A stretch of DNA of 64,000 nucleotides, taken from Paracyclopina nana (lineage: Eukaryota; Arthropoda; Copepoda; Cyclopoida; Cyclopettidae). The notes beneath the pieces are model-generated. The model saw only the letters and a list, made by a program, of their open reading frames with translations. It did not search any database and had not been told where the DNA came from. The translations under genes were made by a program, and so were the position numbers. The stretch is taken from positions 4,836,001-4,900,000 of the forward strand of contig JAGUCH010000003.1 in the NCBI GenBank assembly GCA_019096065.1, given 5' to 3'. Below are positions 38,400-61,482 of the stretch, piece by piece (positions within the stretch are counted from its first letter, which is position 1; every line of letters begins with the position of its first letter).

Positions 38400-38594
38400 T
38401 GTAGCAGGAACACGGGTATACGGGTGTGTTCTGTGGGCGCCTGCGAGCGCCCCGTCCCGGTGAAACGAATTGTACAGCAGTTAATAAACGGACGCACTCG
38501 AGTAAACATCTCGACTAGTTTCAGTAGCAAGTTCTTCTATCGCTACCCGCGGGCGCGCGTGTCATCCTCGGGGGGTCTATACGAACCTCCTACA
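38400..38594 (+). repeat. 5' LTR of element 1
   Basis: 195 bp, identical to 48,560-48,754. It contains AATAAA in TTAATAAACGG, a candidate poly(A) signal. No TATA box is evident. Confidence 0.95.
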
Positions 38595-40096
38595 AGTTGG
38601 CTCGGTGCTGAGGACAACTCCCCGAGTTATCGACACCTTCGCCCCAACAAACCCGCAAATAAGGGACAGCAATATGGCTGAGCAAATAGCCAGATGGGAC
38701 CAAAAGGGGCGTGGCAAGGAGCCACACCCGTAGGCCAACACCACAGTCCAAGCAAGACACCGGTGACACCGGCAGCGAGTCGTCACCCTTGCGCCAGTCA
38801 AGCATTCGTGCCAGAATGACCAGAGCACAGCATCCACCCCAGGCCGAGGTCGGGCGCGTCCCTTGAGGCCGTATGCCCGGATCGCATGGAGGTGTTGTGG
38901 CAGTAGGCATCGCGACACTATAGCAGAAAATCGCGAATACGCTGTCAGCCGGCTATCGTACGCCGAGCAAGCTTGTCCTCGGCTGAGGCCGCCACAGAGA
39001 ATGGCGAGCATCACCAGGAGAGCACGGGCCCTCAGGCAGCAAGATCGCTGGACACCTGAGTCGCTAGAATCACCTCGCTTGTCCTCGGCTGAGGCTGCGC
39101 CACAGAGAATGGCGGGCATCACCAGGAGAGCACGGGCCCTCAGGCAGCAAGATCGCTGGACACCTGAGTCGCCATCACAGCCTCGCCCTCGCAACAAGGC
39201 CACCATCGAAACCTTGGCAGGGAGGCCGCGTTACTCTGCAGAAAAACGCGCATTTGTCAGAACGATTCATGTTAATGATTGCATTAAGATCAATAAACAA
39301 CAACTAACTACACGCTCCCAAATACTGCGCGCGCGCGCAGCCAGAAAGAAATCAGGCCACGACTATCGATTACCCCCGAGAAGTATACCTCGGGAAGCCG
39401 TCAGGCGGACCCCAGCGGCGGGCCGCCAGGCGAAGGCCGGAAAAGGCTTGGCTCTTGAGGATCAGTCAGGATCACTGAGCAATGTATTAATAGGGAAGTT
39501 AATCCCTTGACCCGTAGATGGGTCGGCTCAACCGCTTATCGCTAATCCGCTCACGGTCACTTTCGAGATTGGATCAGGCACAAAATATGGCCATAAATGG
39601 TCACTCGGAGACCGGCATTGTGTCGCGCAAATACGGTCGCAAATAGACCAAGCCGCTGGCCTCTTTATGGCCCCATTCCCAAGGTTACTCCTAGTAACAG
39701 GGGAGATCGACTGCTGTTGCAGCTGCAAGAAGTTGTAAACTAAATCTCGCATCCTGTTGCTAATGAAGCTTCGCTAATAGCTAAATAGCTAAAATTGGCC
39801 GCCTAAATCACCGGTCGTAAACCAGATCTTGTAAACAATCTTGAGAGAGAGTCGTTTCAAAACAATTTATCAGAGGGGCCAGAATTCCCCTGCTGGCCAT
39901 GAGAGCGGCCGTTGCGCTGATCTGGTGACAATAAAAAGAGAGCTGATCGGGGGGTCGAGCCCAGTTCTTTGGAAGCTCCCAAGGCTATTACACCCCCAAT
40001 CTTCTCGCTTTGCACCATTTCACCGCTGGTAAAACGCAACACTTTCAATTGCTTGTACGCTTAAGCTAACTCCTTCTGTATAGCACAGTAGACATC
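38595..40096 (+). other. 5' leader of element 1 with 106-bp tandem duplication
   Basis: The leader begins AGTTGGCTCGGTGCTGAGGA, the primer-binding position; I could not match it to a tRNA by eye. A unit beginning CTTGTCCTCGGCTGAGG and ending GGACACCTGAGTCGC is repeated at about 38,970-39,065 and 39,076-39,172. A 215-codon frame (38,863-39,510) is open over the duplication, rich in Arg, with no homologous frame noted in element 2, so I do not call it a gene. Confidence 0.6.
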
Positions 40097-41440
40097 ATGA
40101 TGCTTCGATCACCAAAGCAACGCCCATCTTCCGCTGACGAAGACCCCGATAATCTCTCCGATCCTGGCCACCTCGCCGGCTCGCGCCGGGAGGAGGTCGA
40201 GGTCCTCGCGCCCTTCGGGGTTGGCGGGGCCCAAGGGGGCAACCCCCTCGGGGTTGGCGGGGCCCAAGGAGGCAATCCACTTGGGGCCCAGGGCGGGACC
40301 CACCCACGATCGGGCACGCCCACAGGGGGAAGCGGCGGCGCCGCTGGCGGGCTTCCGCCGCCCCAATTGGCCGGGCCGAGCAACGCACCCCCGGCGTCAG
40401 GAGACATGCAAGCCATGATGCTCCAACTCCTTCGCGGGTTCGAAGCCCAACGGAACGCCGACCTCGAGACCAGACAGAGGGAGGCCGAGTTGCGACAAGT
40501 GGAGGCGGAAGCCCGGCGCCTCGAGGCCGAGGCCGCCGCGGCTCGCGCCGGTCGCAAGCGGAAACTTGAGAAGTTTGAGGACACAGAGGCCGATAAATGG
40601 CTCACCTTCCGCCTGGATGTAGAGGCCACCTTCTTGGGTTCAACGGCCTCGGAGGCCACCAAGAAAATGGAGATCAAGCACGCCATGGTCGGGGTGGCGC
40701 TCCGGACGGTCAACGAGGTCGACCTCCGACTGGGTGACGAAGCCTTCACCTTCATGCACCTGCTGGATGCGTACGAGAGGTTCTTCGTCACCGCCACGTC
40801 CTCTCAGGTGGCCCGTATTGCCTTGGAGACTGCCCAGCAGAAGGCAGATGAGGCTATTCCGCAATGGCATGCCCGCCTGAGGAGCATCTTTGTTCGAGCC
40901 AGACCGGAGCTCGCCAAGGAGGTCGAGACCTACCCTGACCTCATCCGCATCTTCGTCACCAAGATGCACCGCAAAGACGTAGTAATGGGCCTCGCCGGGC
41001 ACAAGTTCGCCACCATGGCCGATGCCCTGGAGGCCGCTTGCCAAGCCGAGTGTTGGATGACGATCGGGCAAAGCAAAGGCCGAGTAGCCGCCCTGCATTC
41101 CTCGGATGCCGATGCCGACATCACTTGTTTCTACTGCGAGAGGAAAGGCCATCGCCGGGCCGAGTGCCGCGCCCTCGAGCGGGACAAGCGCAACAACCCC
41201 AAGATCAACAAGTGGCACAAAGCTGCAAGCCAACTGCAGCAACGCTCTTCGTCCGCCTCGGGCAAGTGGGGGTCGGGCCAGCCTTCGGACCGGAAGCGGT
41301 CCTCCGATTCCAACCAGTCCAGCGGCAAGCAGTCCGCCGGCAAGCGGCCCAAGGTCAACGAGATCAGTGAGGCCGGCCCTGAGGCCGAGTCGGAAGCTTC
41401 CGGGAATACGCCGGCGGGAAACGACCCGACCCGGTTGTAG
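40097..41440 (+). CDS. gag: gag polyprotein of element 1 (intact)
   Basis: 447 aa. The N-terminus is Gly/Pro-rich with near-repeats (GVGGAQGGNPL twice), then a charged helical part (about 120-150) and a capsid-like region (KFEDTEADKWLTFRLDVEAT onward). A CCHC zinc knuckle, CFYCERKGHRRAEC, lies at about residues 343-356, followed by a basic Ser-rich tail. It ends at the TAG that follows the frameshift signal. It is about 65-70% similar to the element 2 gag by eye. Confidence 0.93.
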   Translation: MMLRSPKQRPSSADEDPDNLSDPGHLAGSRREEVEVLAPFGVGGAQGGNPLGVGGAQGGNPLGAQGGTHPRSGTPTGGSGGAAGGLPPPQLAGPSNAPPASGDMQAMMLQLLRGFEAQRNADLETRQREAELRQVEAEARRLEAEAAAARAGRKRKLEKFEDTEADKWLTFRLDVEATFLGSTASEATKKMEIKHAMVGVALRTVNEVDLRLGDEAFTFMHLLDAYERFFVTATSSQVARIALETAQQKADEAIPQWHARLRSIFVRARPELAKEVETYPDLIRIFVTKMHRKDVVMGLAGHKFATMADALEAACQAECWMTIGQSKGRVAALHSSDADADITCFYCERKGHRRAECRALERDKRNNPKINKWHKAASQLQQRSSSASGKWGSGQPSDRKRSSDSNQSSGKQSAGKRPKVNEISEAGPEAESEASGNTPAGNDPTRL

Positions 41441-41457
41441 AGGGCTCCGCCCGGGTC
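41416..41457 (+). promoter_or_regulatory. -1 ribosomal frameshift signal, gag-pol of element 1
   Basis: The heptamer GGGAAAC at 41,416-41,422 is in the phase X XXY YYZ of gag. A 5-nt spacer follows, then a 7-bp stem, GACCCGG at 41,428-41,434 with CCGGGTC at 41,451-41,457, enclosing the gag stop TAG (41,438-41,440). The pol frame is the -1 frame and is open from here. The same layout occurs in element 2. Confidence 0.85.
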
Positions 41458-44400
41458 ACGCCAGCATCCCTCATCTTGGCCGCATTAGACCACATCACAC
41501 AGCATAAACAATTTTTAACCCAAGTGCCAGTGCACATCGGCCGCATCAAGACGCGAGCCTTAGTGGACAGCGGAAACAGCTGGCGCACTTGCATCTCTGA
41601 GGACTTCGCTAAGCGACTGGGAGTCCTCCCCCACGGGTTGCGACCCCTGGAGGACATGACCGCTGTGGGCACGGCCCACGCCCGCCATCGGCTGCAAGTG
41701 TTGGGGGAACTCAAGCAGCCTCTACGGGTGCAGTTCGGGGAGCACCCTCACGTGTTCTCCATCCGCCCGGCAGTGGTGCGCAATTTGTCTATGGACTTCA
41801 ACCTCTCGGGGCCCTTCTTGAGCCACCACCGCATCGACCAGCTCCACTCGCGGGGTGCCCTGAGAATTCACGGCCAATGTGTTCCGCTGGTTGGGGCCCT
41901 GTCGGCCTCCAGCCAGCCTTCCCCGGGGGAATACCCAATATGTGTCCTCCGGCCGGCCACTGTCCCGCCACGCAGCACTGCTCTCGTCGCGGCCGTTGCC
42001 GCTCTATGGCCTCACGGCGATGCAAAGCCCGCAGTTCTGGAGGCTGAAGGGCAGTTCGCTGAAGAAACCCAGCTGGCTCCTTGGCTGAACGCCGTGGTGC
42101 GACCCTCCGCAGGAGGCCACCTGCTGGTGGGAATGCTGAACCCACTGGATCACCCCTTGCAAGTAAAGGGGGGCACTCTTTACGGTGTGCTAAGGGAGTA
42201 CGAGCCCATGGAGGCCGCTGCCCTCGCTGCATCCGCACCACACCTCCAAGCTATCCGGGCCGCGGAGCCGCCGGGGCTGCCCCTGATGCCAGCCCACAGG
42301 AGAAGATCGAGTTCACGATTCAAGCATTCGGATTGAAAGAAAACGACCTCCTTCGCCGGCATCCCGAACGCCTGAGGGCGGCCGCGTCCCTGCTGGCCGC
42401 GTACCTGGGCGCCTTCTCCTTCGATGGTCGCACTGGGCAGACCAAGTTGGTGGAGCATGCGATAGATCTCAAGCCTGGCGCCCGACCGATCAACATTAGG
42501 CGGAGGCCAATCAACCCCAACCTGGAGTCCTCCTTGAAGGAGCAGATCCATAAGTGGTTGGAAGAAGAGGTCATCACTCCGATCTCATCCCCGTGGTCAG
42601 CCCCACTGGTCCCCGTGCGCAAGAAGGACGGCAGTCTCCGTTGGTGCGTGGATTATCGTGAGCTCAACAAAATAACGGTGGTCGATTCCCACCCCATCGG
42701 GGACGTGAGGGACAACCTGCGCCGGCTAGCCCGCTCCACCGTGTTCTCCACCCGGGACGCGGTGGGAGCCTTCAACGTAGTGCCGATTCGCGCTGAGGAC
42801 GTGGAGAAGACTACGTTCTCCACTGGGGATGGCTCGTATGCCTTCTTGAAGATGCCTTTCGGGCTCACGAATGCCCCTAAGACATACAGCCGCTTGAACC
42901 GCCTGGTATTAGAGGGCGTGCCATGGAACGTGGCCCTGCCCTACCTGGACGACTGCTTGGTTCACTCCCGATTTCGATTCGCACTTGCAAAACCTCAAGA
43001 TCGTCCTCCAGGCCCATCAGAAGGCAGGCCTGTTGCTCAAGCCCACCAAGTGCCACCTCTTCCAGACCAGGGTGACTTACCTCGGGCATGTTGTCACCCC
43101 GAAAGGGCTGGAAGTCATGCCAGCTTACATAGATCTCATTCGCAAGTGGCCGCTACCCAACACTCGCAAACTCCTTCGCATCTTCATGGGCAAGGCCAAT
43201 TACTACCGGGCCTTCATCGAGAAATACCAACACATCGCCGCGCCACTGACTGCTCGGCTATCCAAGGATGATGGGACTTCTGATACTCAGACCTTCGAAC
43301 CGTCGCAGGAGTATCGTGATGCTTTCGAGGAGATCAAAAGGCGGCTCGTGTCGGCCCCGGTCCTTGCGTATCCCGACTTCGCGTCCCCAAACCCGTTCAT
43401 CTTGGACACCGACTTCTCCCAAGAGAACAGGGCAGTAGGGGCGGTCTTGTCCCAGGTGCAGAGAGGCAAGGAGCGAGTCATCTTGTACGGAGCAAAGAAG
43501 TTGACCTCGGCCCAGAGCAATTATTCCGCCAACCAGGGAGAGCTGGTCGCTGTTATTATCTTCATCAAGCAATTCAAATACTACTTGCAGCATCGAAGGT
43601 TCATCCTCCGGACCGACCACCGGGCTCTGCTATGGATTCGCTCCATGGAGGCTCCGACGGGCATGTTGGCCAGGTGGCTCGACACCATCTCCAACTACGA
43701 CTTCGAGGTCGTCCATCGGGCAGGCACCAAGCACGGCAATGCCGATTCCCTCAGTCGGGCGCCTCATTTGGACCAAGCAGGAGACCACATTAGCGCTGAA
43801 GTTTCCGATGACGACTTCTTCCGCGTGGCCAGCCTGAAGCTCATTCCCACCAAACCGGAGTTATGGGCCGAAGCTCAGGAGGAGGATGACGACCTGGTGA
43901 CGCTGCGCCAATTGGTCAAACTCCAGCAAGCTCCCTCCAGAGCCCACCTCGATGCTGCCTCCGCCCGAGGGCGGGTACTCATGGAACAATTCAACAGCCT
44001 ATGCCTGGACCAGCAAGGAGCTCTCCGGCTGCGTGACCCGCAAGGCCGGCCCTCGACTCGGCTCATCGTACCTCGCAAGTGGGAGGAGGCCAGTCTGAGG
44101 CACGTGCACGAAACCATGGGACACCAGGGTCGAGACAACCTGATCCATCGGGCAGCTCAACACTTCTACTTCCCAAACATGGCTAGAGTGGCCGATGAGG
44201 TCGTAAAGTCCTGCTTGCTGTGTCAGAAATCTAAACCCGCAACCTCGGATCAGCGGCACACCCTGGTACCACGCCATGCTGGATTTCCGTTCCAGGTGCT
44301 CAGCCTTGACTATGTGGGCCCGTTCAAGCCCACGTCAAACCAGCACCGGTACCTATTCACGGCCAAGTGTGTGTTCAGTAAGTGGATCGAAGCCTTCCCA

Positions 44401-45858
44401 TGCCGATCCAATGATGCCGAGACAGCGGTACGATTCCTCACGACGGAAATCATCCCCCGTTTTGGACTGCCGGAGCGCCTGCACACCGACCAAGGTACTC
44501 ACTTCACAGCACACCTCATGAGGGAAGTATGCTCGGCTTTAGGCATCAAGGCCACCACCACGCCGTCATACAACCCAAAGAGCAACCCAGTAGAGCGGGC
44601 CCACCGTGACCTTAACGAGCTCATACGTAAGATGATCAAGGGACACTATTCTAAATGGGCCGAAGTAGTGCCGTTTGCATTATTCATCTTGCGTACCACA
44701 AAGAATCGATCCACGGGGCTGGCTCCCTATGAAATGGTGTTCGGCAGGCAACCTACCACCAACCTCGATCTCATCTTTGGGGACCCGCAGCCGGCAGTGC
44801 ATAAGGCAACCGAAGCTGGCCGTTTCGCCAAGCAGCTGCGGGAACGGATACAACTCGCGCATGAGTGGGCTCGCAAGAACATTTCTGCATCCATTGAACG
44901 GCAAAGACGGGCCTATCATATGGATAAGCAAGCCTTCTCCCCAGGCCAGAAAGTGTGGCTGTTCACGCCAAGAATCGTGCGGTCAATATCCAAAAAGTTG
45001 CAAACTTTCTGGACCGGCCCTTGGACCATCGAGAAAAGAATCAACGAGCTCACGTACGAAATCTCGCCAGACCCATCATGGCCGCTAACCAAGAAGCAGG
45101 TTGTCTCCGTGGACCGACTGAAACGGTACATCGAACCGTCAGATCCACAAGCCGAGACCATCACATCGCCTCCCACGGAAAACATGGACTTCGACATGCC
45201 GGGAGATGAATCTGCGGAGCATATGCACGCCCCCGACCCAGCCTCCGATGAACAGCCCAGCGAAACTACACATGCGTTCGAATATGCAGTAGCACCAACG
45301 GATCGCGAATATGGATTCCCACATGCGAAGGATGACACTATTCCGCCATTCAACGACGATCCAACCATTCCAGAATATGACTGCACCATGTTTGAACACA
45401 TGTCACAGGACGATAATGACACCCCTCCGAATGAAGGTGAGCAGCAGGACCAAATCTCACCCGATGATTACGGCCACAACTCGCCGCCGCCATCACCAAC
45501 ACCTCGGCCACCACCGAGGAAAAGAAGAACGGCAGCAGAAATGTTGCAGGAATATTCACAGCAAATATTAGGAGGCCAAGACAAGCTCGCAGAGACCTCG
45601 CGCTCCAGAACGAGAAGCGGCGACAAGCAAGCAAGTCGCGACGATGCACTGCTGCCCCTGCAACAAGCACCAACCGCACAAGCTCTGCCTGAAACAACGA
45701 GGTATCTGCTGCCACCGCTAGAACCGCGGCCACCACCAATAAGACCGTCAATACCATCAACCATCCCAGAAGCGTCGCGATCACAAACATCATCATCATC
45801 ATCACAAGGGCAAAATTCTACCATATCAACACCGAATTCTGATAATGTATTTGATTAA
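41423..45858 (+). pseudogene. pol: pol of element 1, broken by two frame changes
   Basis: The pol region codes for protease (LVDSGNSWRTC), reverse transcriptase (YLDD), RNase H and integrase with a zinc-binding HHCC region and DDE core, plus a long Pro/Ser-rich C-terminal tail. It runs in three frames: to about 42,290, then to about 42,970, then to 45,858. The second break falls a few residues after the YLDD active site of RT. The RT block that reads STLDAVGAF in element 2 is STRDAVGAF here. As it stands no full Pol can be made; the 3' frame (42,985-45,858) is open from RT to the end. Confidence 0.9.
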
Positions 45859-46005: not shown

Positions 46006-46070
46006 TTCTGAGTACCAGTGCTAATCTAATTTGCGACCATACAAACTCATAACCCACAAATCAACAAATC

Positions 46071-48551
46071 ATGACGCCAGTAAGCTGCTTTCTTTGGCCC
46101 TCTATGTACTTGATGGCCTTCTTTGTGTATGCCTACTGGATCCTGTTCAGTGAACTGGCCCAGGCGGCCGTGGTCCCGGGGACGTCACCCCGGAGCCGCG
46201 TCGCTGATCTTTACACCCCGGACGCAAAGGTCACGTCATTCACCACCTACGACTGCGCGCACCCCGATGCCATCCACGAAGCCATCGACCTGAGTCAGCC
46301 AGAGCTCTGCGAGGACATTCGGAGCGCATATCAGGCCCCCGTCAATATCACAGTCCAGGTGCTCCAGACCGCGTCGACCCTCTCGATCAAGGCCTTCCGG
46401 TGCAGGGTGCATTTGTCCCGACAAGTGACAAGATGTGGATACGATAGCATCAGTTATGGCAGTCAAATGACTGATGTCAACCGGCCCTACTTGGTAACCC
46501 CACAAGCGTGTCGGGAGGCCGCGGAGAAGCATTACCTGATAGTGGAGAACAAGAAGGTGGAGGTAGCTCTCAATAATCCGACCTCGCTCTCTTATTTCTC
46601 CAAAGGAGGATTGGATAAGGACCACAAGTGCACCACCACCACTTTCACCAGCGGAGGTGTCACGTTCTACAAATCATACGAGACCACCACCATCCATGCG
46701 CTGGTAGAGCCAATTTACGGGAAGCTGAATACGGCCAACGGGCGGGTGGTGTTCTCCAACCACTTGACGGCGAATTTCCAGGACCTCATCGTGCAAGACG
46801 ATGCGGAAGGTACTATTGTGTGGCCCAAGCGGAAGTCACCTCGCTGCGAGGACGAGCTTAGTGAGGTGTATCGAGGGCCTGCCGTGCTCTATCCTCACCG
46901 GAACGCCACCAGCCTCATGGGAGGAGCTGGACATCTTGGCGATCTCCTCCTGCTAGCCCATGAGGAGGAGTCAAGGTTCGCGGGGTTCGTCCTCAAAGGA
47001 GTACAATCCATGTGTCAGCGGAAGCTGTTCACCACCCAGCTGAGGGACTTTGCCATCCTCTTGGTGGGGCCCGGGGAAGGGCCCCTGCAAGCCAAGTACC
47101 TGCACCCAGAGGACATGGACGGAGCGAACATCCAGACGCAGCTCGCGTTTGTACACTCACAACATGCGCTGCACATTCAGGATCGGTTTAAATTCTTACA
47201 AGAACTGATTTGCAAAAATGAGCGCGCAATCTTACACTCCAAGTTGCAGAGCATGGCCTCCGGATCATCGTCATACGCCACCCTGGACAGCCACGGACCC
47301 GGCCATCTCGTCACGAGGGCGGGGGCCGTGGCCTACGTGACGTCCTGCTACCCTGTACAGGCGGTCACCCGGTCCATCGACAATTGCACCCAGGAAATCC
47401 CCGTGCTGGTCAACAACGAGACCCGGTTTGCGGACCCGCTGTCGTTTATCTTGACCGACCGGCCGAGCGTGGTCCCGTGCGACTCGATCACGCCCATCAA
47501 GTGGCGCATACACAATCAATGGATGTGCGCCACGCCCCAGATCCACGCTTGCATCGCTCCATCCCAGCTCAATCCGATGTCCGACGCCGCTCCGCGCAGC
47601 CATCAGTACGACATTAGCCGCGGATTGGGTGGTGGCGTGTTCTCTGCGGAGCAACGGGCCAACCACATTTTGTACCTCCACCTCTTCAGCAGCCGGGAGG
47701 CGGTGGTCAACACGATCACCAGCAACGTCCTCCACAACTCCCTGATTACGGGTAGCCGCTCTACCACCTTCTGGTCCCAGGAGGACATTGACCAAATGGT
47801 GGACCACGTGGGGAGTGCGATCATTCCCTTCTTCAGTTCGGTGGGGAAGTACTACTCGTACTTCACTGGGTTCCTCATCACCGTGGGCCTCCTGAAGTTG
47901 ATCCTGGGAGCCCTACTCCGTATGATCATCCTCTACCGACGACGCGGCTTCGGATGGTGGATGTTGTTGGCAATCTGGCACACGGCGTTCCTGATGGTGG
48001 AGATGCCGTGGAGGATGGTGACCAACCTAGGGCAGGATCAGATCCTGTTCCCCGGGGGCGACAGCGATGATGAACGGCCCTCTCGCCGAGGACGCCGCCA
48101 CCCCGGGGGTGGGACCACCCAAGCATTCCGCCTGGCCAACCTGGGCAGCTCCGACGACGACGACGACGACGAGGAGGACGCACCGCCCAAGTATGCGACG
48201 GCCGCAGCCGGCGCCGCGGGCGTGGAAGAGGATGAGGCCGCGCCCCGCACTAGACGTGGATTTCGCCAGCGGCTGCGAGAGGCCCTCTCCCAAGAACAGG
48301 ACTCGGTCTACAAAAACCTGCAGGCCCAGGTGGACGTGCTGGCCCGGCAAAACGAGTCAATGCATAATTACCTGATGACCGTGCTACCGGCAGCTACAGT
48401 GCCTACGGTGCCCTCTGCCACGTCCACTCCGCTCAAGCCGTTCCCGGAAGTCGCGGTTTCACCGGCCCCACCGATCTCCCCGGTTCGGCCTGCTACGCCC
48501 AGACAACGGACCGTGGGCCCCCGTCGTGAGGACACGACAACCCTTCAGTAG
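46071..48551 (+). CDS. env: env-like membrane glycoprotein of element 1 (open)
   Basis: 826 aa. An N-terminal hydrophobic segment (about 8-30) is a signal peptide ending near AQAA. The long ectodomain has about 16 Cys and several N-glycosylation sites (VNIT, RNAT, DNCT, NNET). A membrane span lies near 595-624, then a second hydrophobic stretch near 629-650, so the tail may cross or lie along the membrane. The tail is very acidic (a run of Asp), carries PPKY at residues 705-708 and a helical segment (LQAQVDVLARQNESMHNYL). The ectodomain layout resembles chuvirus-like glycoproteins known as captured genes in arthropod retroelements; that assignment is from memory of the family and is tentative. 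No furin-type site is obvious. Confidence 0.8.
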   Translation: MTPVSCFLWPSMYLMAFFVYAYWILFSELAQAAVVPGTSPRSRVADLYTPDAKVTSFTTYDCAHPDAIHEAIDLSQPELCEDIRSAYQAPVNITVQVLQTASTLSIKAFRCRVHLSRQVTRCGYDSISYGSQMTDVNRPYLVTPQACREAAEKHYLIVENKKVEVALNNPTSLSYFSKGGLDKDHKCTTTTFTSGGVTFYKSYETTTIHALVEPIYGKLNTANGRVVFSNHLTANFQDLIVQDDAEGTIVWPKRKSPRCEDELSEVYRGPAVLYPHRNATSLMGGAGHLGDLLLLAHEEESRFAGFVLKGVQSMCQRKLFTTQLRDFAILLVGPGEGPLQAKYLHPEDMDGANIQTQLAFVHSQHALHIQDRFKFLQELICKNERAILHSKLQSMASGSSSYATLDSHGPGHLVTRAGAVAYVTSCYPVQAVTRSIDNCTQEIPVLVNNETRFADPLSFILTDRPSVVPCDSITPIKWRIHNQWMCATPQIHACIAPSQLNPMSDAAPRSHQYDISRGLGGGVFSAEQRANHILYLHLFSSREAVVNTITSNVLHNSLITGSRSTTFWSQEDIDQMVDHVGSAIIPFFSSVGKYYSYFTGFLITVGLLKLILGALLRMIILYRRRGFGWWMLLAIWHTAFLMVEMPWRMVTNLGQDQILFPGGDSDDERPSRRGRRHPGGGTTQAFRLANLGSSDDDDDDEEDAPPKYATAAAGAAGVEEDEAAPRTRRGFRQRLREALSQEQDSVYKNLQAQVDVLARQNESMHNYLMTVLPAATVPTVPSATSTPLKPFPEVAVSPAPPISPVRPATPRQRTVGPRREDTTTLQ

Positions 48552-48558
48552 GGGGAAG
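48550..48558 (+). promoter_or_regulatory. polypurine tract of element 1
   Basis: AGGGGGAAG directly before the 3' LTR; primes plus-strand DNA in LTR elements. Confidence 0.8.
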
Positions 48559-48559
48559 T

Positions 48560-51105: not shown

Positions 51106-51113
51106 TGTAACAA

Positions 51114-51298: not shown

Positions 51299-51498
51299 TG
51301 TAGCAGGATCCCGAGCCTGCGCACCTGCGCTCTCGCCTCCTTCTCGTGCGGTAGCACTACAATTGTACGGCAGTAAATAAACGACTATGCGCGAGCAAAC
51401 AGCTCGACGACATATATCCTTCCAACTAAGATGGAGTCTTATAAGCTATAAGTTAGTAAGGTGTAACGCGTAGGTCTCAGAGTGTTCGAACCCCTACA
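51299..51498 (+). repeat. 5' LTR of element 2
   Basis: 200 bp, identical to 61,283-61,482. Contains AATAAA within GTAAATAAACGAC. Confidence 0.95.
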
Positions 51499-52697
51499 AA
51501 TTGGCGCGGTCGGTAGGACAACTCTTCGAGTACCGCAAAACACGCGACACCTTCGCTCCCGCCTCCATCCCTGGGGAAGTCATTGTTTCCGACAACGACC
51601 AAATAAGACCGGGAAGAGGAAGCAACAATATTAGTGCGTTCCGGCTGAAAGTATGCCACGAACATCAACCTCACCCTCGCTGAGGCTACGGTGGCTGAGG
51701 CTACCAAAAGCTCACGAGAGGGAGCAACTTGGGCAGCAGATCCCGCCACCCGCGTCGTCCCCCGAGACACCGAGTGCGGATGCTGTGCCCCCTGGGTCCA
51801 AACACCAGGACCGTTTCCGCGTCGAGGCCGGGGTGCCCTTGAGAAGAGGCCATCTACCCCGGACCACCGGAAGCGCGCTACATAGTCGGCGCCGCATCAC
51901 TCTGCAGAAGGATGTAACAAGCCACTAGTAATAATCGGTCACTGTACACGCATCGCGAATGCCAATAAACCAAATGTGACTAAGTTGATCAATATATCGC
52001 TCATTCATGCTCCCAACTTAATTCGAATACCGCGCAGCGAACTGCCGGTCGGCCACGCTCACGCACGATCATTGGCCCGAGGCCGCGGCCTCCGGCCGCC
52101 CGGGCGGGTCACAACCCCCCTCAGGGCAGAGACCCAAATCACTGCAATCCAAGGCACTAAATGCTGCTCTGCTCCAATGCATTCCACGCGTAATTGCCGT
52201 GGTGAATAGAGAAGCATTGGCCATCCTGCATCAAAGCAAGAGAGCAGTACAAGCAAGCCATAAACTGGCCCCTTTATGGGGGCTGCATGTTGCGCTTCAC
52301 ATGTGCAGAGCAATTAGCGGATTGTCTGTCAACGCACTAAAAGCCATCACGCTCAAATGCGCAGCATTCGCTCCAAACAACCTTCTTGTTAACGATCGTA
52401 AAACATCTCCTATCGGGGACCGGATCGCACAAACAATTCTAAATTGCTACGCTAAAACGATCCCCGAGGGTCGGAGAATTACAACGGATGCTGCGGGTGA
52501 GCGGCCGCTGCATAGGGGACAAGAGAGGCTATAAAGATCGAGTACCAGGGGAAAAGTCACAGTTCTTTGGATTCGCTCCAAGTTGCTACACCCTGCTCTC
52601 GCGCTTTTTACGCCATTCTTGGTAATTATTCCTCTATTTGCTACGCTAGGGCATTGAAATCAACCTCTTTCACTTATGCAGCCGTCGCTCGCTCATC
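51499..52697 (+). other. 5' leader of element 2
   Basis: Starts AATTGGCGCGGTCGGTAGGA at the primer-binding position; the following GGACAAC is shared with element 1. The tRNA primer is not identified by eye. No convincing ORF. Confidence 0.6.
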
Positions 52698-54068
52698 ATG
52701 CCTGTCGAACGATCTCCTCCTCACACCTCCGCAAACGAGGAGCTCGGGGCGTCCCCAGACAGCCACGAGTTGGGGCCACACCCCGCTGGGCTCCAACAAC
52801 GCTTCGAAGCCGATTTAAGCACCCTCGGGGCCCACGGGGCCGCCGCTGGGAGCCGTCCTGGCCTAGACCCTCTTGGGTTTCCGCGGAACCAAGGATCGGC
52901 CGCTGAGGCCGCCACTGGGGCCAGGCCTCGCCCCGGGTCCGGGGCTAGGGCGGATCCACCAAACCAACCAACTGAAACCGACCCGGCTGGCGCCAACCCC
53001 GACACTGAGGGGCTGTCGCAGTCGATGCTGCTGCAATTCCTGAAGTCCATGGAGGCCCAGCGGCAGGCGGATGCACAGGCCCGCAAACAGGAGGCCGAGC
53101 TACGGCTCCTGGAGATCAACACCCGCCGTCTCGAGGCTGAAAACGCCGCTGCTCGTTCCGGGCGCAAGCGCAAACTCGAAAAGTTCGAGGACACGGAAGC
53201 CGACAAGTGGCTCACCTTCCGCCTTCATGTGGAGGCCACCTTCTTGGGGTCCAAGGACACCGAGGCCACCAAGAAACTGGAGGTTAAGCATGCCATGGTG
53301 GGCGCAGCACTTCGTACTATCAATGAGGTAGATCTGTTCCTGACGGACGAAAGCTTCACCCTCAAGCACCTGCTCGACGCCTACGAGAGGTTCTTCGTCA
53401 CCGCTACGTCGTCCCAGGTGGCCCGCATAGCCCTCGAAACGGCCCATCAGCGCTCTGATGAAGGGATTCCCCAATGGCACGCTAGACTGCGCAGCATCTT
53501 CGTCCGCGCCAAGCCTGAGCTGGCCAAGGAGGTCGAGACCTACCCCGACTTGATCCGTATGTTTGTGACCAAGCTTCACCGCAAGGATGTGGTCATGGGC
53601 ATCGCCGGGCACAAATTCACCACCATGGCCGACGCCTTGGAAGCTGCCAGTCAAGCTGAATGTTGGTTGTCGTTGGGGCAAGGTAAAGGCCGCGTCGCCG
53701 CCATGATTCCCGGAGCCGGCGACGACTCCACGATCGTATGCTTCTACTGCGAGCGTAAGGGCCACCGCAAGAGCGAATGCAGGACCCTCGACTCCGACAA
53801 GCGTAATGGCCGCTACGACTCCAAGATCGACAAGTGGGCTCACGCAGCTTCCCTCAACAAGGACCAGGCGGGTCGAGGGCAGAGTTCCCGAGGTCGAGGA
53901 CGAAGGCGCGCCTCCGACCAGAAAAGGACCTCCGATCGGCAAGGCTCGTCGGGCAAGACCAACAAAAAGGCTCGAGTCAATGAAATCTACGAGGCCAAGC
54001 CCAAGGAAGAACCCGAATCCGAGGCCTCGGATGATTCGGCACCGGGAAACGACTCGACCCGGTTGTAG
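52698..54068 (+). CDS. gag: gag polyprotein of element 2 (intact)
   Basis: 456 aa, same layout as element 1: Pro/Gly-rich N-terminus, charged helical stretch, capsid-like core starting KLEKFEDTEADKWLTF, zinc knuckle CFYCERKGHRKSEC at about 350-363 and a basic tail. Ends at TAG 54,066-54,068, inside the frameshift stem-loop. Confidence 0.93.
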   Translation: MPVERSPPHTSANEELGASPDSHELGPHPAGLQQRFEADLSTLGAHGAAAGSRPGLDPLGFPRNQGSAAEAATGARPRPGSGARADPPNQPTETDPAGANPDTEGLSQSMLLQFLKSMEAQRQADAQARKQEAELRLLEINTRRLEAENAAARSGRKRKLEKFEDTEADKWLTFRLHVEATFLGSKDTEATKKLEVKHAMVGAALRTINEVDLFLTDESFTLKHLLDAYERFFVTATSSQVARIALETAHQRSDEGIPQWHARLRSIFVRAKPELAKEVETYPDLIRMFVTKLHRKDVVMGIAGHKFTTMADALEAASQAECWLSLGQGKGRVAAMIPGAGDDSTIVCFYCERKGHRKSECRTLDSDKRNGRYDSKIDKWAHAASLNKDQAGRGQSSRGRGRRRASDQKRTSDRQGSSGKTNKKARVNEIYEAKPKEEPESEASDDSAPGNDSTRL

Positions 54069-54085
54069 AGAGCTCCAGCCGGGTC
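54044..54085 (+). promoter_or_regulatory. -1 ribosomal frameshift signal, gag-pol of element 2
   Basis: GGGAAAC at 54,044-54,050 in the correct codon phase, 5-nt spacer, stem GACCCGG 54,056-54,062 with CCGGGTC 54,079-54,085, gag stop within the loop. The pol frame is exactly -1 (54,143 minus 54,044 is 99). Confidence 0.88.
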
Positions 54086-57000
54086 CCCTCACCTTCCTCC
54101 ATATTAGAAGCTCTCGACTACATCGCCAGCCATCAACGATTCATGGCCCAAGTCCCGATTCGCATCGGCAAGATCAAAGCCCGGGCCCTGGTCGACAGCG
54201 GCAACAGCTGGCGCACGTGCATCTCCGAGAATTTTGCCCGCCGACTTGGAGTTCTTCCACACGGTCTCCGGCCCATGCTCGACATGCCCGCGGTGGGCAC
54301 CGCCCACGCACAGCAACGCCTCCAGGTCCTGGGGGAGTTACGGCAGCCACTGCGAGTGCAGCTGGGTAATCACCCTCACTCCTTCTCTATCCGACCCGCA
54401 GTGGTACGGAACCTCTCCATGGATTTCAACTTGTCAGGGCCCTTCTTGAGCCACCACCGCATCGACCAGCTCCACTCCCAAGGGACCCTGCGCGTGCACG
54501 GGAAGCAGATCCCGCTGGTGGGCGCCCTCCAACCCGCTGAGGATCAGGAAGAGTACGAAATCCGGATTCTGCGGCCCGTCAATATTCCAGCCCGCACTGT
54601 CACCCTGGTGGCCGCCGTAGCCCCTCACTGGCCCCACGGGTCCACGCGGGCCGCCGCCCTCGAGGCAGAGCCCCAGTTTGCCGCGCAGACGCAGCTGGCG
54701 CCCTGGAACATTGCATTAGTCCAGCCGCGGGCCGGCGGCAGCCTGGCAGTTGGGGTGCTGAACCCCCTGGATCACCCGCTCCGCCTTAAGGGCGGAGTGA
54801 CCTACGGCACCCTCCGTGTCTACGAAGAAAACGAGGGCCCCAGCGGAACCGAGGCTACTCCCTCGGTGCACGCGGTGCGCACGCCGGTCACCACCCGCAG
54901 TACCAGCCGAAAGCAGTCGGAGTCCGATGCCAAGCGCCGTTACGAGCAAGCCAACCTTATCATTGACACCTTCAAGCTGAACGAGAACGACATGCTCAAG
55001 GAGAACCCCAAGCGGCTGGCTCAAGCCGCCACCCTGCTCGCGGCCCACATCGGAGCCTTTTCATTCGACGGCCGCACGGGGCAGACCACACTGGTCGAGC
55101 ACGCCATAGACCTCAAGCCTGGGACAAAGCCCATCAACATCCGTCGGCGACCCATCAATCCGAACCTCGAGGCGTCCCTGAAGGAACAGATCCAGAAGTG
55201 GTTGGATGAAGAAGTCACCACGCCCATCACTTCGCCGTGGTCCGCGCCTCTCGTTCCCGTCCGCAAGAAGGATGGCACGCTGCGATGGTGCGTAGATTAT
55301 AGGGAACTCAACAAGGCCACTGTAGTCGACTCACACCCCATCGGAGACGTCAGGGACAACCTCAGCCGACTGGCCCGCTCCACAGTATTTTCAACGTTGG
55401 ACGCGGTGGGTGCCTTTAACGTGGTTCCCATTCGGGCAGAGGACGTGGAGAAGACCACCTTTTCCACAGGAGACGGCTCATACGCCTTCCTCAAGATGCC
55501 CTTCGGCCTCACCAATGCGCCCAAGACATACAGCCGCCTCAATAGGATGGTTCTGGAGGGCATATCATGGGACGTTGCCCTGCCATACCTCGACGATTGC
55601 TTAGTCCATTCAACCGACTTCGAGTCCCACCTCCGCAACTTGCGCCTGGTGCTGCAGGCCCACGAGAAAGCAGGACTCCTGCTGAAGCCGTCCAAATGTC
55701 ACCTGTTCCAATCCAGAGTGACATACTTGGGGCATGTTGTCACTCCTCAGGGCCTCGAGGTCATGCCAGCCTACATTGACCTCATCCGTGAATGGCCCTT
55801 GCCTAACACCAGGAAGCAGCTGCGTATCTTCCTTGGCAAGGCCAATTATTACCGATCCTTCATTGAGAAATACCAACATGTCGCGGCGCCCCTGTCGGAC
55901 AAGCTCTCCAAGGACGACGGCACCAGCGACAACCATGTTTTTCAACCCAGCCCGGAGTTCCGGGCCGCTTTCGACGAGCTCAAGAAGAGGCTGACCTCTG
56001 CGCCTGTACTGGCCTATCCGGACTTCTCCTCGCCTAACCCCTTCATCCTGGACACGGATTTCTCACAAGAAAACAGGGCTGTTGGGGGGGTCCTTTCCCA
56101 AGTCCAAGATCGCAAGGAAAGAGTCATCTTATACGGCGCCAAGAAGCTGAACGCCGCTCAAAGCAACTATTCCGCTAATCAGGGCGAGCTGGTGGCCGTA
56201 ATAATTTTCATCAAGCAATTCAAGTATTACCTGCAACACCGCCGTTTCATCTTGCGCACTGACCATCGGGCCCTCCTCTGGATCCGCTCCATGGAAGCGC
56301 CCACGGGAATGCTGGGCCGATGGCTCGACACCATCTCCAACTACGACTTCGAAGTGGTGCACCGGGCAGGAGTGAAGCACGGCAACGCCGATTCCCTCAG
56401 CCGAGCGCCCCACCTGGCACAGCGGGGTGACCATATCAGCTCAGACGTCTCTGATGATGACTTTTTCCGGGTGGCTAATCTCAAGCTGATTCCCACGAAG
56501 CCGGAAGCGTGGGCTGCGGCCCAGGAGGAGGACGATGACCTGGTCCTTTTGAGACAGCTAGTCCGACTGAAACAATCGCCCTCGCAGGAGAACCTCAACG
56601 CCGCATCACCTCGAGGTCGCGTGCTACTGGAACAACTAAGTTCCATGACCATGGATCGGCAAGGTGCTCTTCGCTTGCTGGATCGGAAGAGGCAAACCTC
56701 GCGACTGGTGGTGCCCCGCCAGTGGCAGGAAGCCAGCCTCCGCCACGTACACGACACCATGGGACACCAAGGGCGCGACTCCGTGGTCCACAGGGCAGCT
56801 CAGCACTTCTACTTCCCAGGCATGACGCGTCTGGCCGATGAAGTCGTCAAGTCCTGCCTCCTTTGCCAGCGGTCCAAGCCGGGCCAGAAAAATCAATTGC
56901 ACACCCTCAAATCGCATTACGCGGGCTACCCGTTCCAGATCTTGAGCCTCGACTACGTAGGGCCGTTCCAGCCTTCGTCGAACCGTCACCGCTACTTGTT

Positions 57001-58492
57001 CACTGCTAAGTGCGTCTTCACCAAATGGATCGAAGCTTTCCCGTGCGGTTCCAATGATGCTGAAACAGCCGTGCGGTTTTTGACGACCGAAATCATCCCT
57101 AGATTTGGCCTTCCAGAGAGACTACACACCGATCAAGGGACTCATTTCACGGCCCATCTCATGCGGGAAGTATGCGCGGCCCTTGGGATACAAGCCACCA
57201 CTACTCCTTCATACAACCCGCGCAGCAACCCGGTCGAACGGGCGCATCGGGATCTCAACGAGCTCATCAGGAAGATGGTCAAGGGTCGATACGCGGACTG
57301 GGCCGAGGTCGTTCCCTTCGCCCTCTTCGTCCTCCGTACCACCAAAAACCGCTCCACGGGCATGGCACCATATGAAATGGTTTTCGGTCGCCAACCGTCG
57401 ACCAACCTGGACTTGATCTTTGGGGACCCGCAGCCGGCTGTAGCAAAGGCCACGCAAGCAGGCCGATTTGCCAAGCAGCTGAAGGAGCGAATACAACTGG
57501 CGCACGAATGGGCACGGAAAAACATCTCAAACTCGATCGAGCGACAACGACGGGCCTACCACATGGACAAGCGTGCGTTCATAGTGGGACAGAAAGTGTG
57601 GCTGTTCACCCCGAAGGTTATTCCACGCATCTCTAAAAAGCTACAAACCTTCTGGACGGGACCTTGGACAATTGAAAAACGAGTGAACGAGCTCACTTAC
57701 GAAATAGCACCAGACCCGTCTTGGGCTCGAGCTCGAAACCAGGTCGTCTCGGTAGACCGCCTTAAGTTGTACATCCCACCTGACCAAGATCAAGGCAACG
57801 TGTCTACTGCACCACCGGCCGAGGATCTGGATCTGTCCATGTTAGGCGACGAATCCGCCGAATTCCTCGCGGACCCACAACATGAAGTCGCGGCGGAGCC
57901 CGCTAATGACCTCGCTGTGCCTTATGAATATGCGGTGGCCCCGACGGACAGAGAATATGGGTTCCCAGAAGCCCGAGATGACCCCATCCCGGCCTTCAAC
58001 GACGACCCCACGATACCTGAATATGACTGCACCCGGTATCCATCCGATCCGGATGAACGCCCATCCACACCGGATAATGAGTCTCCACAGAATACTCCGC
58101 GACTGCCAAGCCCTCCTACAGACGATGATGAGCCCAGGCGCACTAGCACAGTGGTGAAAAGGAAACGACGATCAAATGCAGAAATGTTGCAGGCTGACAC
58201 CGAGCGATTCTTAGGCGGACCAGAGGCGGTCACCAAACGGTCTAGATCCAAAACACGCAGCGGTGACAGGAAAAGCACGACCGATGAGGATACGTTGCCA
58301 CTGCAGCATTTGCAGGCCAACCCGCCAACCGTGCATCAAGCAACTAGGTATCTGCTCCCACCGCTAGAACCGCGGCCACTACCTCTTCGACCGACCATTC
58401 CGTCACCAATCAAAGAGGCCTCTCACTCAACATCATCGTCGGCACCGTCAGCAGCTACCGCAGAAACGTGCGACGACGTGTTCCAGGACTAA
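54051..58492 (+). CDS. pol: pol polyprotein of element 2 (intact)
   Basis: Made by -1 frameshift from gag; about 1480 codons from the slip site (1449 from the first internal ATG 54,143). Protease: ALVDSGNSWRTC. RT: from PINIRRRPINPNLEASLKEQ through TLDAVGAF and YLDDCLVHS. RNase H: ILDTDFSQENRAVG, YSANQGELVAV, RTDHRALLW. Integrase: zinc-binding His/Cys (HDTMGH...CLLC) and DDE (SLDYVGPF, TDQGTHFTA, NPVERAHRDLNE). A roughly 250-residue C-terminal tail is Pro/Ser/acid-rich with a KRKRR-type basic patch and a conserved TRYLLPPLEPRP. No stops or frame breaks seen, so this copy could supply Pol. Confidence 0.95.
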
Positions 58493-58720: not shown

Positions 58721-58812
58721 TCTGAGTTAATAACCAACTACCTCCTAGCGAAGGGAATTTATAAAGTGTTTATAAAGTGTACACTAGCTCACCACTACGT
58801 ACTACGTCCACC

Positions 58813-61274
58813 ATGCATCCAGGTCATTGTTTGTGCAGTCCCACGCTGATGCTCCTCGTCTTCTTTGGATACAGCTACTGGATCCTCCTCAACGAGGTGG
58901 CCCAAGCAGCAGCCTTCCCGGGGCAGTCACCACGACCAGCCGATTTGTACACCCCAGACGCCAAGGTGACCTCGTTCACCACCTATGACTGCGTGCATCC
59001 AGATGCCATGCACGAAGCTATCGACCTGAGCCAGCCTGAACTCTGTGAAGATATTCGCAGCTCTTACCAGTCGCCGGTTAATATCACGATTCAGGTACTG
59101 CAGACGGCCTCGACCCTCTCCGTCAAGGCATACCGGTGCCGAGTGCACATATCGCGGGAAGTTACCCGCTGTGGATACGATAGCATCAGTTATGGGAGTC
59201 AAATGACGGATGTAAATAGGCCCTACCTGGTAACGCCGCAAGCCTGCCGAGACGCCGCCGAGAAACGCTTCCTGCTGGTGGAAAATAAGAAGGTCCAAGT
59301 CACGCTCAATACCCCCGTGTCCCTGTCGTACTTCTCCAAGGGTGGGCTCGATAAGGATCACAAGTGCACGACGACTACTTTCACCAGTGGGGGCGTGACA
59401 TTCTACAAATCGTATGAAACCACCACGATCCACGCGTTGGTGGAACCGATCTACGGGAAGCTAAACACGGCCAATGGGCGGGTGGTCTTCTCCAACCACC
59501 TTACAGCCAACTTCCAGGACTTGATCGTGCAGGACGACGCCGAAGGCACCATTGTGTGGCCTAAGCGCAAGACCCCCCGCTGCGAAGATGAACTGAGCGA
59601 AGTATACAAGGGGCCGGCCGTTCTGTACCCTCACCGCAACTCGTCCAGCTTCAGCGGCAACGCGGGTCACCTAGGAGACCTGCTCCTCCTCGCCCACGAA
59701 GAAGAATCGCGGTTCGCGGGATTCGTCCTCAAGGGCGTGCAGTCCATGTGCCAGCGGCGGCTGTTCACCACTCAGCTCCGCGACTTCGCTGTCTTGATCG
59801 TGGGACCCGGGGATGGACCCCTCCAAGCCAAGTACCTTCACCCGGAGGACATGGGACGGTGCGAATATACAGACACAGCTGGCATTCGTGCATTCGCAGC
59901 ATGCGCTGCATATCCAGGACAGATTCAAGTTCCTCCAGGAACTTATCTGCAAGAACGAACGATCGATCCTGCACTCCAAGCTTCAGAGTATGGCTTCCGG
60001 CTCCTCATCGTACGCCACCCTTGATAGCCACGGACCAGGCCATCTAGTCACCCGTGCCGGGGCTGTAGCCTATGTTACCTCCTGCTACCCGGTGCAAGCT
60101 GTCACCAGGTCTATTGCGAACTGCACACAGGAGATTCCCGTGCTGGTGAACAACGAGACACGATTCGCGGACCCTCTCTCCTTTGTGCTGACTGACCGGC
60201 CCAGCGTGGTCCCATGCGATTCCATCACCCCGATTAAATGGAAGATCCACAATCAGTGGATGTGTGCCACCCCCAGATCCACGCCTGTATTGCCCCTACG
60301 CAACTCAACCCCATGTCGGACGTGGCTCCCCGGAGCGGACATTACGACATCAGTCGAGGACTAGGGGTGGAGTGTTCTCGGCGGAACAGCGGGCCAACCA
60401 TATCCTCTACCTCCACTTGTTTAGCAGTCGGGAGGCCGTGGTGAACACTATCACTAGTAACGTGCTCCACAACTCGCTTATCACGGGCAGCAGGTCGACT
60501 ACGCTATGGACGCAGGAAGACATTGATCAAATGGTGGATCATGTTGGCAGCGCAATTATTCCTTTCTTCAGCTCAGTAGGGAAGTATTATTCCTACTTCA
60601 CAGGGACTCTCATCACCATTGGCCTGATCAAGTTGATCCTCGGAGCCGTCATCCGGATGATCATCCTGTACCGACGGCGCGGACTGGGTTGGTGGATGTT
60701 CTTGGCTCTGTGGCATACAGCCTTCCTTATGGTCGAAATGCCGTGGCGGATGCTTACCAACCTTGGGCACGACCAGATTCTGTTCCCTGGCGGGGACGAC
60801 GATGACGAGGATCAACCCCCGACACGCGGCAGGCGCCGACCTCGAAACCGGGAAGGACCCGAGGCGTACCCCCTGGCCGCCCTCAGCGACGGAGACGAAG
60901 AAGATGACGACGAGGCACCCCCTAAGTACGGGATCGCAGAACCGGGAGAAACCGATGGACCCCGCCGGTCTGGATTCCGCCAACGCATGAAGGAGGCTCT
61001 ATTTAAAGAACAAGACGGCCTCTACCGGAACCTGCAGGCACAGGTCGACGCGCTGGCGAGGCAGAACGAGACCATGCATAACTACATTATGGCTGTGCTC
61101 CCCTCGGCTCCTGCGCCCAACACTGTGGCCTCCGCGACCTCGACGCCCCTGAAGTCACCGATGGAAGGAGGAGCGACCACCGGTCCACCTATCTCCCCTG
61201 TACCTCCGGCCACGGGATCCCCCCGACATAGGGTGCCAGCATTGCGCCGTGAGGACACGGCCACGCTTCAATAG
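58813..61274 (+). pseudogene. env: env-like glycoprotein of element 2, broken
   Basis: Homologous over its whole length to the element 1 env. The frame changes near 59,850, 60,277 and 60,366, so no full glycoprotein can be made. The parts kept are the signal peptide (GYSYWILLNEVAQAA), most of the Cys-rich ectodomain, the membrane spans, the acidic tail and PPKY (60,918-60,929). The frame start at 58,813 has a good start context and matches the element 1 start better than the GTG-led extension upstream. Confidence 0.88.
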
Positions 61275-61281
61275 GGGGAAA
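61273..61281 (+). promoter_or_regulatory. polypurine tract of element 2
   Basis: AGGGGGAAA one base before the 3' LTR. Confidence 0.8.
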
Positions 61282-61282
61282 T

Positions 61283-61482
61283 TGTAGCAGGATCCCGAGC
61301 CTGCGCACCTGCGCTCTCGCCTCCTTCTCGTGCGGTAGCACTACAATTGTACGGCAGTAAATAAACGACTATGCGCGAGCAAACAGCTCGACGACATATA
61401 TCCTTCCAACTAAGATGGAGTCTTATAAGCTATAAGTTAGTAAGGTGTAACGCGTAGGTCTCAGAGTGTTCGAACCCCTACA
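61283..61482 (+). repeat. 3' LTR of element 2
   Basis: Identical to the 5' LTR over 200 bp. Confidence 0.95.

What the first reader, a model, noticed from the sequence alone, without database searches (positions are those of the whole stretch)
38400..61482. Two neighbouring env-bearing retroelements with reciprocal defects
Element 1 keeps open gag and env but its pol is broken twice. Element 2 keeps open gag and pol but its env is broken three times. Each pair of LTRs is identical, so both are young, and they lie 2.5 kb apart in the same orientation. Seen directly: frames, LTR identity, order. Inference: the products of the pair could in principle complement each other in trans, and the locus may be an active or recently active endogenous-retrovirus-like site.
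Basis: partly seen in the sequence, partly recalled or inferred. Interest (0 to 1): 0.85.

Follow-up and report, generated by a model that had tools for sequence, protein, structure and literature searches.

The report
Two young env-bearing Ty3/gypsy retroelements
Two neighbouring virus-like jumping elements in an animal genome carry an envelope gene related to those of chuviruses; they belong to two old, separate families with many young copies, and their seemingly matching defects look like coincidence and probably partly sequence-assembly error.

Summary
Element 1 (38400-48754) and element 2 (51299-61482) are complete LTR elements with identical LTR pairs and 4-bp target duplications. Element 1's pol changes frame twice, element 2's env three times.

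Both are Ty3/gypsy-type (PR-RT-RH-IN, gag-pol overlap with a GGGAAAC slip site). Their env is a class III fusion glycoprotein of the chuvirus/gB type. They are not copies of one family: synonymous sites are near or beyond saturation, while env pieces have the lowest dN/dS.

The 92-Mb host genome holds many young copies of both. At least five element-1-type copies have pol and env both open, so nothing depends on this pair. Frame changes differ from copy to copy; recurring ones mostly do not follow SNP groups (a weak test in element 1), as run-length errors would.

Among element-2 copies env is strongly purified (w 0.06-0.09) although LTR pairs are nearly identical. This suggests young insertions from an older replicating pool in which Env was needed, and argues against long-term rescue of env-dead copies in trans. 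I file it as a new member of a known kind; raw reads would decide the breaks.

The parts
38400..38594 (+). Element 1 5' LTR, 195 bp, TG...CA
   Evidence: identical to 48560-48754
38595..38620 (+). Element 1 putative primer binding site (TGG a few bases after the LTR)
   Evidence: position by inspection; primer tRNA not identified
40070..41437 (+). Element 1 gag open frame, 456 aa, one CCHC knuckle, weak PNMA-type match
   Evidence: Pfam, below curated cut-offs
41416..41422 (+). GGGAAAC slip heptamer in the gag/pol overlap, in the frame for -1 frameshifting, hairpin downstream
41383..42333 (+). Element 1 pol piece A (aspartyl protease), frame 1
   Evidence: Pfam weak, below cut-off; 61% aa identity to element 2
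42063..43268 (+). Element 1 pol piece B (N-terminal part of RT), frame 3; a frame change at each end
   Evidence: RVT_1 4.5e-13, profile 1-161
42913..45855 (+). Element 1 pol piece C (end of RT, RNase H, integrase), frame 1
   Evidence: Pfam
46053..48548 (+). Element 1 env, open, 832 aa: class III fusion glycoprotein of chuvirus/gB type
   Evidence: PF24664 1.9e-76; fold matches
48550..48559 (+). Element 1 polypurine tract
   Evidence: by inspection
48560..48754 (+). Element 1 3' LTR
51299..51498 (+). Element 2 5' LTR, 200 bp
   Evidence: identical to 61283-61482
51499..51525 (+). Element 2 putative primer binding site
   Evidence: by inspection; primer tRNA not identified
52650..54065 (+). 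Element 2 gag open frame, 472 aa
   Evidence: Pfam CCHC and weak PNMA, below cut-offs
54044..54050 (+). GGGAAAC slip heptamer in the gag/pol overlap
54035..58489 (+). Element 2 pol, open, 1,485 aa: PR (DSG), RT (YLDD), RNase H, integrase (HHCC, D-D-E)
58765..60021 (+). Element 2 env piece 1 (frame 1)
   Evidence: PF24664 4e-29
59798..60361 (+). Element 2 env piece 2 (frame 2)
   Evidence: PF24664 1.5e-22
60271..60366 (+). Element 2 env piece 3 (short, frame 1)
60192..61271 (+). Element 2 env piece 4 (frame 3)
   Evidence: PF24664 2.5e-11
61273..61282 (+). Element 2 polypurine tract
   Evidence: by inspection
61283..61482 (+). Element 2 3' LTR

Best explanation
These are two young insertions of two distinct, anciently separated families of Ty3/gypsy-type endogenous retroviruses with a chuvirus-type class III envelope protein. 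Shown from sequence: LTRs, gag, an in-frame -1 slip site feeding pol, a Ty3-like pol, a third gene of the Monjiviricetes/gB fusion-protein type, integration with 4-bp duplications, and many sibling copies. Inferred: the RNA is copied by the usual LTR route, Gag-Pol is made by -1 frameshifting, and Env lets particles enter cells, so that the lineages that persist are those with a working Env. The breaks in this window are copy-level noise, probably part assembly error at base runs and part recent decay; they are not a selected complementary pair.
For: Element structure. pol is closest by sequence to Ty3 among solved chains (7q5b, 5e-100; next other kinds 8r0s 'Enzymatic polyprotein' 3.1e-41 and 8wus 'Gag-Pol' 2.3e-33). 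Env: PF24664; best BFVD matches are chu-like and other negative-strand virus glycoproteins (1.2e-42), best PDB matches herpesvirus gB (2.3e-13). Slip heptamer in 17 of 19 other element-1 and 10 of 12 other element-2 copies. Element 1 against element 2: dS 1.27 to saturated; w 0.04 and 0.08 in two env pieces, 0.12-0.21 in gag and the two pol pieces where it could be computed. Genome copies: 20 element-1 and 13 element-2 LTR pairs among the LTRs scored; open env and open pol in many copies. Among 12 element-2 copies env w is 0.06 (shared) and 0.09 (private); their env differs by 2.5% on average while the LTR pairs of 10 of them differ by 3 in 1,995 bp.
Against: Private substitutions in element-1 pol are far less purified (w 0.53) and rich in transversions, so post-insertion change or error is also present. 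By amino-acid identity one pol piece (82%) exceeds one env piece (76%), so 'env most constrained' rests on w and on two of the three env pieces compared. Copies ranked by open env or by LTR similarity are biased samples. TM-scores of the fold matches are low. No expression, particle or infection data. No tree of RT or env with named references was built.
Confidence: 0.8

Rival explanations
1. One reading: a young pair with reciprocal defects whose products complement each other in trans.
For: The frame pattern is real; LTR pairs are identical; same strand, 2.5 kb apart.
Against: Different lineages with near-saturated dS and different LTRs. At least five element-1-type copies have pol and env both open, so complementation by this pair is not needed. 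Env is under purifying selection among element-2 copies. Break patterns vary freely from copy to copy.
Confidence: 0.07
2. All or nearly all breaks in the window are assembly errors and both elements are intact in the animal.
For: Of 49 frame-changing indel sites in the pol stretch of 19 element-1 copies, 41 are 1 nt and 21 touch a run of 4 or more, while about 4% of bases lie in such runs. Recurring sites mostly do not follow SNP groups; one is present in 9 of 19 copies. In element-2 env 12 copies show 29 minority frame-changing occurrences at 16 sites, against roughly 20 substitutions expected from the LTR-pair rate (my arithmetic from 3 differences, so with a wide error), far above usual indel:substitution ratios (recalled).
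Against: No frame change was seen inside the Pfam-matched stretches of 11 host open frames totalling 10.7 kb, so the error would have to be specific to repeats. One of the two breaks in element 1 pol is private to this copy and 2 nt long. Two recurring element-1 sites come near to following SNP groups (p 0.07). Real decay of some copies is evident (L037; L046; L060).
Confidence: 0.35
3. Ordinary decayed LTR retrotransposons whose env is a passenger without function.
For: Most copies sampled through their LTRs have at least one frame change in the gene examined.
Against: Env pieces have the lowest w between element 1 and 2, and env is about as constrained as pol, or more, among element-2 copies (env w 0.06/0.09, pol 0.07/0.18).
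Confidence: 0.05

Closest known systems
Env-carrying Ty3/gypsy elements of metazoans (Chary and Hayashi 2025, eLife RP108449)
   Same: Ty3/gypsy gag-pol with an envelope gene; reported as widespread in metazoans
   Different: The paper is not held, so its env types and clades could not be compared; seen only as cited in PMC13172572 and PMC12859917 (passages). My recollection is that it includes gB-like env; unverified.
Anakin (BEL/Pao element with chuvirus glycoprotein, mosquitoes; Dezordi 2020, PMC7642597, passages)
   Same: Chuvirus-type glycoprotein captured as env by an LTR element
   Different: Anakin pol is BEL/Pao; here pol is closest to Ty3. The 2023 follow-up (PMC10084718, passages) found Gypsy fragments next to such glycoproteins but no clear capture by Gypsy.
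Insect errantiviruses (PMC12992720, passages)
   Same: Metaviridae with an env gene that makes them infectious
   Different: Their env is F-type, related to baculovirus envelope proteins; here it is class III/chuvirus type
TelKA of bdelloid rotifers (PMC5408684, passages)
   Same: LTR element with env taken from a negative-strand RNA virus
   Different: Paramyxovirus F-type env; a dUTPase domain; env/ORF3 variation within the genome described as mostly neutral, unlike here

Membership tests
Metaviridae (Ty3/gypsy) | Domain order PR-RT-RNase H-integrase | tested here: met
   (protease match below cut-off; DSG motif)
Metaviridae (Ty3/gypsy) | pol closer to Ty3 than to other reverse-transcribing viruses | tested here: met
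   7q5b 5e-100; next kinds 3.1e-41 and 2.3e-33; ranking of solved chains only, no tree
Metaviridae (Ty3/gypsy) | LTRs TG...CA and 4-6 bp target duplications | tested here: met
   range of duplications from PMC12440569
Metaviridae (Ty3/gypsy) | tRNA-complementary primer binding site | tested here: inconclusive
   TGG close to the LTR end; matching tRNA not sought in the genome
Errantivirus | F-type (baculovirus-like) env | tested here: not met
   PF24664 and gB-like fold
Retroviridae | pol within the retroviral clade | tested here: inconclusive
   the ranking of solved chains speaks against it; no tree
Anakin / BEL-Pao with chuvirus G | BEL/Pao pol | tested here: inconclusive
   Ty3 ranks first by far, but no BEL/Pao reference was compared directly
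Anakin / BEL-Pao with chuvirus G | chuvirus-type glycoprotein as env | tested here: met
Chuviridae endogenous element (non-retroviral) | glycoprotein outside a retroelement, or with other chuvirus genes | tested here: not met
   env sits between pol and the 3' LTR; no polymerase or nucleoprotein of an RNA virus among the frames scanned
Troyka | CG...CG LTR ends and 3-bp duplications | tested here: not met
   TG...CA, 4 bp; definition from PMC12440569 (abstract and passages)

The most novel reading that the evidence does not exclude
Two co-circulating lineages of Ty3/gypsy retroviruses with a chuvirus-type class III envelope are still spreading in this species as infectious agents. New copies come from a diverse pool, replicating partly outside the germ line or between animals, in which Env is required at each cycle.
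Probability: 0.3. Interest if true: 0.7.

Novelty: new member of a known kind. Interest (0 to 1): 0.42.

Why it matters
LTR elements have become retrovirus-like several times by taking env genes from unrelated viruses. A young, many-copy Ty3/gypsy system with a chuvirus-type envelope under strong purifying selection is a good natural case for asking whether such elements spread as viruses or as transposons. It also warns that apparent gene breaks in multi-copy elements of a single assembly need reads before any story is built on them.

Tried and rejected
Viral contig scans with element-1 env, element-2 pol and the env alignment found no relative; phage records none with env. Linking env and pol relatives in the protein database by equal longest-contig length (10,331 and 9,985 bp occur in both lists, the latter showing 120 of 688 hits) is only suggestive and was not used. 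A conserved leader gene before gag was looked for; only scattered weak matches were found. Rfam at gathering thresholds found nothing in the window. The host could not be named: a cryptochrome whose best solved relatives are 'Cryptochrome-1' chains (that the top one is from Drosophila is recalled) and introns of about 50 bp (my reading) do not settle it. An env selection test on 20 more diverse element-1 copies was not possible.

Rows dropped before counts: degenerate copy L037 from the element-1 pol alignment; L046 from the element-2 env selection, SNP and divergence tests; L050 and L051 (three-LTR locus on C9) from the element-2 env counts; L060 from the element-2 pol selection test; one of ten env-chosen LTR pairs (5' LTR not found). 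LTR pairs were tested for 10 of the 12 other element-2 copies.
Full report
OBSERVATION. The two elements are as described. Element 1 spans 38400-48754 with 195-bp LTRs, element 2 spans 51299-61482 with 200-bp LTRs. Each pair has no difference, all LTRs are TG...CA, and the flanks carry 4-bp duplications TTTT and CAAT. Element 1 sits in an array of 15-bp repeats. Element 2 sits in one copy of a tandem unit of about 1,076 bp whose neighbour shows the empty site (the unit length is my arithmetic). Stop-to-stop frames and tblastn pieces confirm two frame changes in element 1 pol and three in element 2 env; gag is open in both, element 1 env for 832 aa and element 2 pol for 1,485 aa. Local DNA alignments show indels of 1 or 2 bases at four of the five places; the first place in element 1 pol lies in a stretch too diverged between the elements to see it that way, and comparison with sibling copies shows a 1-base difference there.

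WHAT THEY ENCODE. Pfam finds a CCHC knuckle and a weak PNMA-type match in gag and a weak aspartyl protease (all below curated cut-offs), then RT, RNase H and integrase in that order, and as third gene the Monjiviricetes fusion glycoprotein PF24664 (1.9e-76 for the open env of element 1). The open pol of element 2 is closest by sequence to Ty3 among solved chains (5e-100; the next kinds are 8r0s 'Enzymatic polyprotein' 3.1e-41 and 8wus 'Gag-Pol' 2.3e-33), and has YLDD, DSG, HHCC and a D-D-E triad. gag and pol overlap in the -1 frame, and the only two GGGAAAC heptamers on the + strand of the two elements lie in these overlaps in the frame needed for slipping, with a hairpin after them. The fold of the 96 bases from just after the heptamer is not significant for element 1 (z -0.16) and modest for element 2 (z -1.85). 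The heptamer is kept in 17 of 19 other element-1 and 10 of 12 other element-2 copies. That GGGAAAC is a retroviral slip site is recalled, not looked up.

ENV. A model of element 1 Env made with 22 homologues has mean pLDDT 72, mostly 80-95 in the ectodomain, and pTM 0.42. Foldseek's best viral matches are glycoproteins of chu-like and other negative-strand viruses (1.2e-42), and the best solved structures are herpesvirus gB (2.3e-13); TM-scores are low (0.2-0.4 among the top matches), so this is a family-level match, not a close one. The 22 database relatives, 23-42% identical over the alignment, all carry PF24664.

TWO OLD LINEAGES. Between the elements synonymous divergence is 1.27 to saturated in the eight pieces compared, with w 0.21 in gag, 0.19 and 0.12 in two pol pieces, and 0.04 and 0.08 in two env pieces; one env piece and two pol pieces could not be computed because synonymous sites are saturated, and the short env piece was not compared. 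Amino-acid identity is 63% in gag, 70-82% in pol pieces and 76-89% in env pieces. So these are not two copies of one element, and env is on the whole the most constrained gene. The breaks came long after the split.

THE GENOME. The host assembly has 91.95 Mb in 10 contigs. With the element-1 LTR, 40 of 135 candidates were scored: 33 at 100% and 7 at 99%, forming 20 pairs 9.7-10.2 kb apart. With the element-2 LTR, 40 of 107 were scored, at 97-100%; 26 form 13 pairs about 9.9-10.0 kb apart, three form one locus, 11 are unpaired in the list. The env search scored 54 of 475 candidates and the pol search 31 of 997. Crossing the two lists by position, at least five element-1-type copies have pol and env both open without a stop; none is named here and their gag was not checked. 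Among the 20 LTR-chosen element-1 copies (window included) pol is open in 3, one of them about 46 codons short, and env in at least 7 (five of the 20 are not in the scored list). Among 13 element-2 copies (window included) pol is open in 4 and env in 1. Given such frequencies, a neighbouring pair with opposite defects is unremarkable. With 33 to about 120 full-length copies in 92 Mb I estimate 0.03 to 0.4 neighbour pairs within 2.6 kb by chance (my arithmetic, assuming random placement and, for 120, that all LTR candidates are real and paired).

ARE THE BREAKS REAL? In the pol stretch of 19 element-1 copies there are 222 substitution columns (192 private) and 49 frame-changing indel sites, 41 of them of 1 nt; 21 of the 49 touch a run of four or more, a context holding about 4% of bases. 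The run measure takes the longest run in any copy and so leans upward. I tested the 11 indel groups that recur in two or more element-1 copies, one present in 9 of 19; none reached p 0.05 for following shared SNPs, though two came to p 0.07 and one pair is nested in one SNP group; with only 24 shared SNP columns and mostly pairs this test is weak. In element-2 env, with 84 shared SNP columns and clear groups, five groups tested at four sites gave p 0.35-0.65 and no exact SNP group. Of the window's two pol breaks, the first recurs in one other copy of 19 and the second is private. Of its three env breaks, one is in 2 of 13 copies, one in 7 of 13, and one in 13 of 13 LTR-chosen copies. One of these 13 nevertheless has env open in one frame, by my reading because other indels nearby restore the frame, and two more element-2-type env genes outside the 13 are open (typed by identity). 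So that shared site may be a systematic run-length error or an inherited change that some copies compensate; I cannot tell. Against a general error, 11 host open frames of the window (10.7 kb) show no frame change inside their Pfam-matched stretches; FAM91 and the kinesin are spread over several frames, which I read as introns of about 50 bp without proof. A repeat-specific polishing error, mixed with real decay, fits best; only reads can decide.

SELECTION AND AGE. Among 12 element-2 copies env substitutions give w 0.06 (shared: 58 S, 11 N) and 0.09 (private: 101 S, 28 N); pol of 12 copies gives 0.07 and 0.18. Env of 8 near-identical element-1 copies gives 0.16 for private changes (18 S, 8 N, 1 stop) and 3 S, 0 N shared, but these were the best-scoring copies, all but one without a stop. 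Element-1 pol private changes are different: w 0.53 and slightly more transversions than transitions (99 to 89), as error or neutral decay would give; its few shared changes give w 0.17. Env of the element-2 copies differs by 2.5% on average (0.2-5.7%), while LTR pairs of 10 of them are identical in 8 cases, with 3 differences in 1,995 bp, and all 10 have matching 4-bp duplications. So most divergence is older than the insertions and happened while Env was being selected. Ten element-1-type copies chosen by env, not by LTR, look somewhat older: 5 of 9 usable pairs identical, 6 mismatches and 2 gap columns. The inference that env selection across copies means reinfection follows an argument used for mammalian ERVs (recalled); in bdelloid elements the authors instead describe mostly neutral variation of ORF3 (PMC5408684, passages).

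MECHANISM. Most likely: transcription from the LTR, -1 frameshifting for Gag-Pol, reverse transcription primed near the LTR end (primer unknown), integration with 4-bp duplication, and Env-mediated entry by a class III fusion protein. Shown: the genes, signals, copies and selection. Inferred: expression, particles and infection.

KNOWN OR NEW. Env-carrying gypsy elements are reported as widespread in metazoans (Chary and Hayashi 2025, not held; seen as cited). Capture of a chuvirus glycoprotein is known in BEL/Pao (Anakin, PMC7642597, passages), and a 2023 survey saw no clear capture by Gypsy (PMC10084718, passages). My searches around chuvirus-type env and gypsy elements listed no paper whose title or abstract start describes this case, but I saw mostly listings, and the main paper could not be read. 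I therefore file it as a new member of a known kind.

Noticed in passing
window 51111-51260 and 62377-62522: Foldback repeats with 64-66 nt arms 86-88% complementary, part of a tandem unit of about 1,076 bp into one copy of which element 2 inserted.
   Followed up: partly
window 38230-38401 and 48754-49555: Arrays of a 15-bp unit of the type TTTTTGCCCCTTGGA flank element 1 on both sides; further downstream the units are in reverse orientation.
   Followed up: no
window 38971-39172: A 108-bp tandem duplication in the leader of element 1; no tandem array was reported in the leader of element 2.
   Followed up: no
G000 contig C9, about 2036471-2054721: Three element-2-type LTRs in a row, 8.5 and 9.5 kb apart, as from recombination between copies or a nested pair.
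   Followed up: partly
window 25364-26809 and surroundings: A cryptochrome closest to 'Cryptochrome-1' chains among solved structures; nearby frames match THG1, FAM91, CobW, BRCT, kinesin and UAA transporter families.
   Followed up: partly
protein database hits P0003/P0114 and P0019/P0056: Env and pol relatives whose longest contigs have the same length and source, hinting that the same gene pairing exists in other organisms.
   Followed up: no
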